In this document: one piece after another, positions 6,042-40,045 of the stretch
Layout: each line of letters opens with the position of its first letter
Numbering within the stretch: the first letter of the stretch is position 1
DNA from: an uncultured bacterium
Lineage (GTDB): Bacteria; UBP6; UBA1177; JAKLFG01
NCBI GenBank assembly: GCA_937871295.1
Contig: CALMRE010000063.1
Span: 1-40,992, forward strand
Direction of reading: 5' to 3'
DNA length: 40,992 nt
The notes under the pieces: model-generated
Seen by the model: only the letters and a program-made list of their open reading frames with translations
The model's database searches: none
Told to the model about the DNA's origin: nothing
Position numbers and translations under genes: made by a program

Positions 6042-6503
6042 TTACTTGCGACAATCTACTACGCACTTATTTTCGCGACATCTTGCCGCATATTTCTTTT
6101 CGAGACAAAAATGAACCATGTGATCAAAATCAAAGCATTTTCTGTTTTTGCTTATTATTTTTTTTATTTCTTCTTCAGCTTTTCGGTTGACCTCTCTCAC
6201 ATCAAACGAGTCAATAGTTACCAAGATACAATCTTCATCTCTTACGCAAGACAAGTTCTTTTCTCTTACGATGAATGCTTGAATCATCAAATTTTTGCAC
6301 GGGATTGAAACCTCGTCATTATCGATGAGCCCCTTAATTTTTTCATATATGCCTATTTCTTTGGTTTCTTTAATGTGTTGTCGAAGTTCTATCTTCTCAG
6401 GGTCTTTTTCTTCGCATCCGGTGGTATGCATAAGAAAAGCAAGCAGGAGAAATGAAGCGGTGGCAAGGGAAACAGAAAGTTTTTTGTCAGCGTTGTTCAT
6501 CAT
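6042..6503 (-). CDS. small Cys-rich lipoprotein of unknown function
   Basis: The product is a 153-residue predicted lipoprotein: a charged N-terminus, a hydrophobic stretch ending MHTTGC, then an acidic/basic helical segment and several Cys residues. The motif CVRDEDC resembles the CxxDxDC pattern common in small secreted proteins of Myxococcota-like bacteria. I recognise no catalytic domain. A longer ORF starts at 6605, but its first 34 codons run through a promoter and ribosome binding site. The -10 at 6532-6537 puts the transcript start near 6525, and AGGGAAGGGG (6520-6511) is best spaced for the ATG at 6503 or 6500. Its promoter lies in the left copy of the ~100-bp direct repeat, so it shares regulation signals with the nucleotidyltransferase module upstream. 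Confidence 0.7.
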   Translation of the reverse strand: MMNNADKKLSVSLATASFLLLAFLMHTTGCEEKDPEKIELRQHIKETKEIGIYEKIKGLIDNDEVSIPCKNLMIQAFIVREKNLSCVRDEDCILVTIDSFDVREVNRKAEEEIKKIISKNRKCFDFDHMVHFCLEKKYAARCRENKCVVDCRK

Positions 6504-6531
6504 GGTCATGCCCCTTCCCTTCAGACTCCTC

Positions 6532-6560
6532 ATTCTACTTTTTGCCGTCGGACAAGTCAA
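6532..6560 (-). promoter_or_regulatory. sigma70-type promoter of the small lipoprotein gene
   Basis: On the minus strand TTGACT (6560-6555), 17 nt and TAGAAT (6537-6532) match consensus at five of six bases in each hexamer. The predicted transcript start near 6525 leaves a short leader with an AGGGAAGGGG ribosome binding site before the ATG at 6503. The same promoter occurs in the right repeat copy. Confidence 0.75.
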
Positions 6561-6575
6561 CAGCGACGAAAAGAG

Positions 6576-6602
6576 AAAAAATCGCCCCGAAAAACACAGG
6601 AC
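6576..6602 (-). terminator. terminator-like hairpin in left repeat copy
   Basis: On the minus strand GTCCTG (6602-6597) and CGGGGC (6589-6584) can form a 6-bp stem with two G-U pairs, followed by a T6 tract (6581-6576). It lies after the stop of the 79-residue partner gene and before the lipoprotein promoter, where a terminator is expected. It is weaker than the right copy because one C-G pair has become U-G. Confidence 0.45.
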
Positions 6603-6663
6603 CAATTTCCGATGTATCGTAAAACGGTTCTTAACTTTCGCTTAGGTTTTTGCCTTACGGTTG

Positions 6664-6903
6664 CTATTGTCGGTTCAGTCCCAACTTGTCGGCGAACTTG
6701 ATGAACCGCGCCTGCATGAGCACTAGACTCCTCTCCGATTTCGGCTGCTTGAAACGCATTCCCATATCGAGCAACGCATCGACGATACGCCAGTCGTAGG
6801 GCCGATTCGCTAATTCTTCGTCGCGTATACGCTGAAGTTCGGGACCCGCCTTTACCCACTGCTGGACGACCTGACGCTCCTGTTCCCGGGTAATGGTGCT
6901 CAT
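6664..6903 (-). CDS. small helical partner of the nucleotidyltransferase (possible antitoxin or cofactor)
   Basis: The product is 79 residues, charged and predicted mostly helical, beginning MSTITREQERQVV and containing GPELQRIRDEEL. It has no DNA-binding motif I can name and no HEPN RxxxxH motif, so it is not a classical HEPN partner of an MNT antitoxin. Its ATG (6903) overlaps the TGA of the upstream nucleotidyltransferase by 4 nt (ATGA), which indicates translational coupling and suggests a fixed stoichiometric pair. Short proteins with a GPEL-RIR-EEL type helix beside AbiEii-like nucleotidyltransferases are something I recall from other genomes, but I could not verify this. Role as antitoxin, adaptor or neither is unresolved. 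Confidence 0.65.
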   Translation of the reverse strand: MSTITREQERQVVQQWVKAGPELQRIRDEELANRPYDWRIVDALLDMGMRFKQPKSERSLVLMQARFIKFADKLGLNRQ

Positions 6904-7463
6904 TTTTTCACCTTCAATAAGCCCTTGACACGCGGAATGATCTCGTCATCCTCTTTCAAGGCGCAGAGTAGTTCCAACTGACGGAAGATATAGGGATGGT
7001 CAAGTCGCTTGCCCTGCCGCTTGATGATCCCTTCGATATCGCTCCAATCGTGGGGCCGTCCCGCGAATGCCTTTGATACGAGCAGATCTTCGGCGGTGCA
7101 CATCGGTAGAATCAGGCCGGGAGCGAACTCGAAATTCACGGCCCGAGCCAACATCTCTTCTTCGAACGACAGCGCACCGAAGGCGACATCGACAGCGGCA
7201 CCGTTAGGCATGGTGATGAGTAAAACCCGGCTTCGCAGGGAAAATTCAAGCGCGGTTGATATGCGGGGAGCGTAGTGGGTCAGTATCTCCCGCGCAAAAG
7301 TTTCCTCATTGCCAAAACCGGTCAGAAGCGTCAGATCGACATCCTGTGTGGTGCGCGGTTCGCCCCATCTCTGAACAGCAAGTCCGCCGATGATACAGTA
7401 ACGCCAGCCTTTGCTGTCGAAAAACCGGCCGATATCGGCCGCCGCCTCGAATAACAGGTTCAC
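6900..7463 (-). CDS. AbiEii/MNT-like nucleotidyltransferase-fold protein
   Basis: The 187-residue product carries the minimal polymerase-beta nucleotidyltransferase signature: GG at residues 26-27 (IIGGLAV), catalytic acids Asp41 and Asp43 in TTQDVDL, and a third Asp92 in AAVDVAF. A C-terminal helix with AEDLLVSKAF and DWSDI is typical of AbiEii/AbiGii-like and MNT families. Such proteins add nucleotides to tRNA or a partner protein in toxin-antitoxin or phage-defence systems. I chose GTG at 7463: GGGAGG lies 6 nt before it, and the -10 at 7488-7493 puts the transcript start near 7481, downstream of the ATG at 7484. It overlaps the small partner gene by 4 nt. Whether it acts as toxin or antitoxin cannot be told from sequence. 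Confidence 0.75.
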   Translation of the reverse strand: MNLLFEAAADIGRFFDSKGWRYCIIGGLAVQRWGEPRTTQDVDLTLLTGFGNEETFAREILTHYAPRISTALEFSLRSRVLLITMPNGAAVDVAFGALSFEEEMLARAVNFEFAPGLILPMCTAEDLLVSKAFAGRPHDWSDIEGIIKRQGKRLDHPYIFRQLELLCALKEDDEIIPRVKGLLKVKK

Positions 7464-7487
7464 ACCATCCTCCCGAATGAGCATCCC

Positions 7488-7516
7488 ATTCTACTTTTTG
7501 CCGACGGACAAGTCAA
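7488..7516 (-). promoter_or_regulatory. sigma70-type promoter of the nucleotidyltransferase module
   Basis: On the minus strand TTGACT (7516-7511), 17 nt and TAGAAT (7493-7488) form a near-consensus promoter identical in both hexamers to the left repeat copy. The predicted transcript start near 7481 gives a leader of about 18 nt with GGGAGG before the GTG at 7463. Confidence 0.75.
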
Positions 7517-7531
7517 CAGCGATGAAGAGAG

Positions 7532-7557
7532 AAAAAATCGCCCCGAAAAAACGGGAC
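7532..7557 (-). terminator. intrinsic terminator-like hairpin after cvpA, in right repeat copy
   Basis: On the minus strand GTCCCG (7557-7552), a T6 loop and CGGGGC (7545-7540) form a 6-bp stem followed after two bases by a T6 tract (7537-7532). It sits about 55 nt past the cvpA stop and immediately before the next promoter. The short stem makes moderate strength likely. Confidence 0.55.
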
Positions 7558-7612
7558 CAATTTCCGATGTATCGTAAAACGGTCCTGCGAAAAACCAGCA
7601 TTTTTGAGGCAA

Positions 7613-8062
7613 TTAGACGAGGAAATCGAGGATGGCGTTGGCCACCGAGAAGATGAAGGAGTCGTCGAGGTGCCGTTTGGCCTCAGAGAGCATCTGCTTG
7701 GACCAGAGGAACCGGGTGATGTAGGCGGCGAACACCATGAGCAGCGTCGCCTTCACGAAGCCGACGATGACGCCGATACCCTTGTTCATGCTCCCGAGCA
7801 CTCCGTCCTTTGTTTCAATGATACCTTTGAGCATCCATGCCACAAGGATATTGAGCGTGAAATAGACCGCGATGAACGCCACGATGAAGATGCCGTTGGC
7901 GGCGGGTCCGAACTGCAGGAAGAAGGTCTTGACCGACGGCAGCATGAAGAGGATCATCAGCCCGATCATGGCGGTCACCCTGAGTATCTCGCGGAACCCG
8001 CCCGCCAGATAACCGGCAAGCATCGCTCCGACGAATATCAGGGTACAGATGAGATCGACCAT
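7613..8062 (-). CDS. cvpA: CvpA family membrane protein
   Basis: The 149-residue protein has about four hydrophobic segments and the CvpA start MVDLICTLIFVGAMLAGYLAGG, with the Gly-rich turn and FREILR of the family. CvpA (colicin V production) proteins are inner-membrane proteins linked in Enterobacteria to envelope homeostasis and bile tolerance; their molecular activity is not settled. A GAGGTAGG ribosome binding site precedes the ATG at 8062. That site directly abuts the T-run of the terminator after rplQ, so cvpA has almost no leader of its own. It must be transcribed by read-through or from a promoter inside rplQ. Confidence 0.8.
   Translation of the reverse strand: MVDLICTLIFVGAMLAGYLAGGFREILRVTAMIGLMILFMLPSVKTFFLQFGPAANGIFIVAFIAVYFTLNILVAWMLKGIIETKDGVLGSMNKGIGVIVGFVKATLLMVFAAYITRFLWSKQMLSEAKRHLDDSFIFSVANAILDFLV

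Positions 8063-22563: not shown

Positions 22564-23773
<1,210 letters not shown>

Positions 23774-38835: not shown

Positions 38836-40045
<1,210 letters not shown>

What the first reader, a model, noticed from the sequence alone, without database searches (positions are those of the whole stretch)
6531..7586. A terminator-promoter unit duplicated as direct repeats around a two-gene nucleotidyltransferase cassette
Seen: two ~100-bp blocks (6531-6631, 7487-7586), roughly 93 percent identical with one gap, lie in the same orientation. Each ends at a TTGACT-17-TAGAAT promoter that feeds a different gene (lipoprotein or nucleotidyltransferase). Between them lies only an 855-bp two-gene module. Inference: the module arrived with, or inserted by homology into, a portable terminator-promoter unit, so that insertion leaves both neighbours insulated and expressed. 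Repeated units of this kind could be a cassette insertion platform in this genome.
Basis: partly seen in the sequence, partly recalled or inferred. Interest (0 to 1): 0.75.

Follow-up and report, generated by a model that had tools for sequence, protein, structure and literature searches.

The report
Toxin-like gene inserted with duplicated promoter
A MenT-like nucleotidyltransferase gene pair sits in this genome between two copies of the ~100-base control region it landed in; this is one case of a recurrent way in which single defence-type genes enter this bacterial genus, not a portable promoter unit.

Summary
The repeat is real. Copies B (7487-7586) and A (6531-6631), minus strand, are 94% identical with one gap. 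They flank only a MenT1-like nucleotidyltransferase gene and a 79-aa gene. The portable-unit idea fails: the genome has no third copy, and of 96 other genomes searched only one congener has the repeat, once, upstream of pepF as here. That congener is the nearest thing to an empty site: one repeat, no cassette, and the same left border as copy B.

About 1 Mb of stretches from the two congeners held about ten more accessory genes between direct repeats of 28-107 bp. Arms are gene 3' ends, a gene start, promoters or a tRNA end. At aroD the congener shows an undivided single copy, and the displaced copy carries an in-frame stop. [quoted passage not shown] Whether the second copy was made at insertion or arrived with the insert is open.

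The left half of the repeat is a palindrome of a kind found, usually in tandem, upstream of AAA_14/DUF4143 ATPase genes in several phyla; here that gene is absent. Units of this gene family sit at different loci in the two congeners, so they look mobile.

The parts
7487..7586 (-). repeat copy B, upstream of the nucleotidyltransferase gene
   Evidence: 94% identical to copy A; 94/98 identical to the congener's copy
7587..7609 (-). left extension of copy B, shared with the congener's single copy and absent from copy A
7554..7585 (-). 32-bp imperfect palindrome of copy B, AAA_14/DUF4143 operator type
7540..7557 (-). terminator-like stem of copy B, T-run follows
   Evidence: fold z -2.4
7488..7516 (-). 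predicted promoter TTGACT-17-TAGAAT of copy B
   Evidence: prediction only
6900..7484 (-). MenT1-like nucleotidyltransferase gene; likely start GTG 7463
   Evidence: 8an4 E 2.9e-10; weak AbiEii/DUF2204
6664..6903 (-). 79-aa gene overlapping the end of the nucleotidyltransferase gene; candidate partner or antitoxin
   Evidence: no family found; role inferred from position
6531..6631 (-). repeat copy A, upstream of the lipoprotein-like gene
   Evidence: carries all inferred A/B changes
6599..6630 (-). 32-bp imperfect palindrome of copy A
6532..6560 (-). predicted promoter TTGACT-17-TAGAAT of copy A
   Evidence: prediction only
6042..6509 (-). lipoprotein-like gene downstream of copy A
   Evidence: no family
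7613..8062 (-). cvpA, left neighbour; rearrangement breakpoint lies just after its stop codon
4166..5932 (-). pepF (M3 peptidase), right neighbour; also follows the repeat in the congener

Best explanation
The MenT-like gene pair was inserted into an existing ~100-bp control region (palindrome, terminator-like stem, promoter) that lay upstream of an accessory gene next to pepF. The event left a direct duplication of that region on both sides: insertion with long target duplication. Because the duplicated segment happened to be a whole promoter unit, both the inserted pair and the old downstream gene keep a promoter. Shown: the repeat, its restriction to this locus, the single-copy state in the congener, and the same insertion pattern at about ten other genes of the two congeners, one with a clear unoccupied site. 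Inferred: that this module entered by that route, and that the promoters work. Not decided: whether the second copy was made by fill-in or template switching at insertion, or came with the insert by homologous recombination.
For: Only two copies in the genome, one in the congener, none in 95 others. The congener has one repeat and no cassette, and its left flank matches that of copy B at 23 of 24 bases but not that of copy A. A and B are sisters relative to the congener's copy: 5, 9 and 4 differences over 98 positions for A-B, A-congener, B-congener, and both have one palindrome where the congener has two. About ten further accessory genes lie between direct repeats in ~1 Mb of the two congeners. 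At aroD the congener has an undivided 3' end, while in the window genome a displaced second copy with an in-frame stop lies beyond the insert. Published precedent: long, variable (order of 100 bp) target duplications around restriction-modification genes, often with rearrangements (PMC1643837, PMC3874152); here a rearrangement breakpoint lies at the left edge of copy B.
Against: The congener's site is rearranged and carries other downstream genes, and its right flank does not match that of copy A significantly (p 0.35), so the empty site is incomplete. No intraspecific empty site was available. All A/B change falls on A (5 against 0), which is marginally unexpected for two copies made at one moment. 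No held relative has the cassette elsewhere, so its own ends are not defined independently.
Confidence: 0.6

Rival explanations
1. A circular or linear donor DNA that already carried the same control region next to the nucleotidyltransferase pair integrated by homologous recombination (single crossover or one-sided homology). The two copies are then a resident and an imported allele. This is the homology half of the first reader's idea.
For: All A/B change is on A. In other cases of the pattern both arms look like functional alleles: malQ, L235 and L190 ends keep reading frames and amino acids, and 22.5 of 46 changes are silent against ~24% expected without constraint.
Against: Counts are small and two of the five alignments are imperfect; an attached constrained copy plus a displaced neutral copy would already give roughly 38% silent changes. 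Some arms are identical (L222), and 28-46 bp is short for homologous recombination. A and B are sisters relative to the congener's copy.
Confidence: 0.25
2. One local duplication of the control region, followed by replacement of the DNA between the copies; no insertion of a unit.
For: The repeat is confined to this locus; the sequence alone does not show order of events.
Against: Needs two events where one suffices; the same layout recurs around unrelated single genes, with an unoccupied site at aroD.
Confidence: 0.08
3. A portable terminator-promoter unit that spreads in this genome and serves as a cassette insertion platform.
For: The repeat is a self-contained control region, and different genes follow it in the two congeners.
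Against: No other copy in the genome; one copy in one of 96 other genomes, near the same pepF gene. No match in plasmids or viral contigs.
Confidence: 0.03
4. Assembly artefact joining different loci at the repeat.
For: The genome is in 271 contigs, and the cvpA/repeat junction differs from all relatives.
Against: The longest identical stretch between the copies is 30 bp, and the rearrangement has its reciprocal junction, argS/ilvE, on another contig of the same genome.
Confidence: 0.04

Closest known systems
Insertion with long target duplication of restriction-modification genes in Helicobacter pylori (Nobusato et al. 2000, cited in PMC1643837; reviewed in PMC3874152)
   Same: One small selfish-type gene module between direct repeats of about 100 bp of target DNA, without a recombinase gene, next to a genome rearrangement.
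   Different: The cargo is a MenT-like nucleotidyltransferase pair (elsewhere in the genus AAA_14, YhcG, LRR and other genes), and the duplicated target here is a promoter region; comparison is between species, not strains.
MenAT1 toxin-antitoxin system of Mycobacterium tuberculosis (8an4; PMC10435456)
   Same: Nucleotidyltransferase of the same family with the catalytic positions conserved, paired with a small protein gene.
   Different: The small gene lies downstream, not upstream, and does not resemble MenA1.
Tandem palindrome upstream of AAA_14/DUF4143 ATPase genes (PADLOC PDC-S01)
   Same: The repeat holds the same type of 32-bp palindrome, in tandem in the congener with the GTC-NN-GAC junction.
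   Different: No AAA_14/DUF4143 gene follows it here or in the congener.
Integron gene cassettes with attC sites
   Same: Same-orientation repeats around a promoterless-size one- or two-gene unit.
   Different: No attC core motifs, only two copies, and the repeat carries a promoter.

Membership tests
Insertion with long target duplication | Direct repeat of target DNA, tens to hundreds of bp, on both sides of the inserted genes | tested here: met
   101 columns, 94% identity
[quoted passage not shown]
   The congener has one copy and no insert; left flank matches copy B, right flank does not match copy A significantly. Met fully only for the aroD case
Insertion with long target duplication | No recombinase or inverted ends in the insert | tested here: met
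   855 bp with two ORFs, neither a recombinase
Portable repeat element or insertion platform | Several copies in the genome or at different loci in relatives | tested here: not met
   Two copies here, one in one congener near the same gene
Integron cassette | attC core motifs GTTRRRY and RYYYAAC in the repeat | tested here: not met
   Neither occurs in copy A or B
AAA_14/DUF4143 operator | 32-bp palindromes in tandem with a GTC-NN-GAC junction | tested here: inconclusive
   Tandem in the congener's copy; a single palindrome in window copies A and B
AAA_14/DUF4143 operator | AAA_14/DUF4143 gene directly downstream | tested here: not met
   Other genes follow in both congeners
MenAT toxin-antitoxin system | MenT-type nucleotidyltransferase with catalytic residues | tested here: met
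   8an4 E 2.9e-10 over residues 27-156, with the DxD, Lys and Asp positions aligned
MenAT toxin-antitoxin system | Cognate MenA antitoxin that neutralises toxicity | not testable with these tools
   79-aa neighbour has no MenA1 similarity; needs expression tests

The most novel reading that the evidence does not exclude
AAA_14/DUF4143 ATPase genes (PADLOC PDC-S01) are one-gene mobile elements. Their ends are a 5' repeat operator and a point just past the stop codon; they move without any other recombinase and enter with long, variable target duplications. The window's repeat is the operator left behind by such an element, taken over as a promoter region and then duplicated when a toxin-like pair used the same entry route.
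Probability: 0.3. Interest if true: 0.78.

Novelty: new member of a known kind. Interest (0 to 1): 0.5.

Why it matters
How single defence and toxin genes without recombinases move is an open question. This genus offers paired examples in two species, at least one with a clear unoccupied site, so the fill-in and homology models can be told apart. The AAA_14/DUF4143 observation, a widespread gene family with a conserved operator and units that change place between congeners, gives a specific family on which to test one-gene mobility.

Tried and rejected
IS21-like end: suspected from the look of the palindrome, but the motif scan led to AAA_14 genes instead. Palindromes as two-sided element ends: found only on the 5' side of AAA_14 genes. 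Integron attC: core motifs absent. Plasmid and viral matches to the repeat, and plasmid matches to the nucleotidyltransferase: none. Structure of the nucleotidyltransferase from a single sequence: pLDDT 41, not used. Homology of the right flanks of copy A and the congener's copy: not significant. Silent versus replacement changes between repeat arms: suggestive, not decisive; two of the five alignments are imperfect (an indel in L228, and the script chose a wrong frame for L235). A first control run returned no loci because of an id format and was repeated.

Full report
What is there. On the minus strand the order is rpoA, rplQ, cvpA, repeat B, a nucleotidyltransferase gene, a 79-aa gene, repeat A, a lipoprotein-like gene, pepF, pgpA (rpoA and rplQ named from their sequences). 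The repeats are 6531-6631 and 7487-7586, 94% identical with one gap, far beyond chance. Each holds, in order, a 32-bp palindrome, a short terminator-like stem with a T-run, and TTGACT-17-TAGAAT. The terminator is only weakly supported: copy B folds better than shuffles, copy A does not. The -10 box ends four bases before the ATG of the nucleotidyltransferase ORF, so GTG 7463, with GGGAGG upstream, is the likely start.

The cargo. The nucleotidyltransferase matches the M. tuberculosis toxin MenT1 (8an4, E 2.9e-10), with the D-x-D, Lys and Asp positions conserved in the alignment. PMC10435456 reports that changing D41, K137 or D152 abolishes MenT1 toxicity. The 79-aa gene starts inside the end of the first, as in a translationally coupled pair; it does not resemble MenA1. 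A toxin-antitoxin function is therefore inference.

The repeat is not portable. The genome has these two copies and nothing else below E 0.3. Among 96 other genomes (one congener, three of the same family, others more distant) only congener G001 (GenBank contig JAKLIW010000006) has the repeat, once. It lies between argS and two other accessory genes that precede pepF. G001's copy has two palindromes in tandem; the window copies have one. Pairwise differences (A-B 5, A-G001 9, B-G001 4 over 98 positions) place all A/B change on A and make A and B sisters. The identity of 91-96% is ordinary for control regions between these species: the stretches just upstream of argS, pepF and ilvE and between rplQ and cvpA are similarly conserved. 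No recent transfer of the repeat needs to be assumed.

Position and rearrangement. In same-family genomes G002 and G004 cvpA is followed directly by ilvE, and pepF is preceded by a gene that I take from its sequence to be ahcY. In G001 cvpA is followed by a KilA-N-like gene, an ankyrin-like lipoprotein gene and ilvE. In the window genome cvpA joins repeat B and pepF, while argS joins ilvE on another contig. That reciprocal change has one breakpoint at the left edge of repeat B.

Same pattern elsewhere. In about 1 Mb of stretches from the two congeners I looked for direct repeats around one or two complete genes. Besides the window there are about ten: AAA_14 genes in L214 (28 bp), L222 (35 bp, identical), L262 (43 bp) and L265 (60 bp, containing what looks like a tRNA 3' end); a YhcG/DUF1016 nuclease in L220 (96 bp, 3' end of the upstream gene); a gene behind malQ in L228 (107 bp); an AAA_16 ATPase in L235 (61 bp); an LRR lipoprotein behind aroD in L231 (46 bp); a serpin in L207 (45 bp, intergenic); and L256 (about 79 bp, promoter plus gene start). 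Domains are, arm sequences; malQ and aroD are named from sequence. The stretches were partly chosen because they hold AAA_14 genes, so the count is not a genome-wide rate. Some hits in the raw list are internal repeats of long genes or paralogues and were set aside by eye.

The best-documented case is aroD. Congener G001 has one 3' end, TAPGQIDLATAKKLWKESKS*. The window genome has an attached copy, TAPGQLDLATAKKLL, that now runs into the insert, and 1 kb downstream a displaced copy, TAPG*IDLATAKKLLKK*, with its own stop codon and a new in-frame stop. That is the expected result of insertion with duplication of the target.

AAA_14/DUF4143 units. The palindrome pattern of the repeat was sought in 85,462 genomes. 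Eleven stretches matched: several, in Desulfobacteraceae, Parachlamydiaceae and Verrucomicrobiota, have it directly before an AAA_14/DUF4143 ATPase gene; two are isolated copies, one is the congener itself, and two look like chance. Starting instead from the protein (384 genomes), 16 of 31 upstream regions carry the tandem junction [AT]GTCNNGAC[CT], against 0.19 expected from shuffles and 1% of control stretches. Same-order genomes G014 and G015 have nearly the window's version. Four or five AAA_14-type units of 1.2-1.5 kb sit at different loci in the two congeners, with 80-95% nucleotide identity that stops near the upstream repeats on one side and at about the stop codon on the other. For one pair (L272/L255) my script did not recover the ATPase motif, although one search lists the gene as AAA_14. 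Only two of these units have recognisable flanking repeats. Over all AAA_14 loci, 9 of about 55 genes have flanking repeats, against 0 of 49 core-gene loci and 9 of 304 random windows. PADLOC lists this family as defence candidate PDC-S01 and the YhcG family as PDC-S02. The held papers say almost nothing on DUF4143 or COG1373. That DUF4143 is a PD-(D/E)XK-type nuclease domain is my reading of a sequence motif, not tested.

Interpretation. [quoted passage not shown] pylori (PMC1643837; PMC3874152 adds that such duplications are of the order of 100 bp and that movement goes with rearrangements). How the duplicate arises stays open: several arm pairs look like diverged alleles, which would favour import by homology, but the counts are small.

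Limits. The window genome and its congener are fragmented assemblies, and no reads were available. Promoters, terminators and operator binding are predicted, not measured. The congener's site is rearranged, and only its left flank matches. No strain-level sibling of the window species was available.

Noticed in passing
upstream regions in L164-L205; window 7554-7585 and 6599-6630: AAA_14/DUF4143 ATPase genes in several phyla have tandem 32-bp palindromes (GAC..GTC) flush with their promoter: 16 of 31 show the tandem junction against 0.19 expected.
   Followed up: partly
L267/L253, L268/L243, L269/L254, L272/L255, L261/L249: AAA_14-type one-gene units of 1.2-1.5 kb, 80-95% identical, lie at different loci in the two congeners, with homology ending near the operator and the stop codon.
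   Followed up: partly
L265 4889-4948 and 6234-6293: An AAA_14 gene lies between 60-bp repeats (98%) that contain what looks like a tRNA 3' end, as at integrase attachment sites, but without an integrase gene in the insert.
   Followed up: no
L037 6520-8290: In the congener, the KilA-N-like and ankyrin-like genes after cvpA each start with a similar TCCTTGACATT promoter stretch, possibly another duplicated promoter.
   Followed up: no
L110 2514-2570 and L101 5250-5310: Isolated copies of the tandem palindrome without an AAA_14 gene next to them, in other bacteria.
   Followed up: no
window 22564-22863 and 38836-39135: A 300-bp stretch is repeated with 100% identity 16 kb apart, possibly parts of two copies of one gene.
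   Followed up: no
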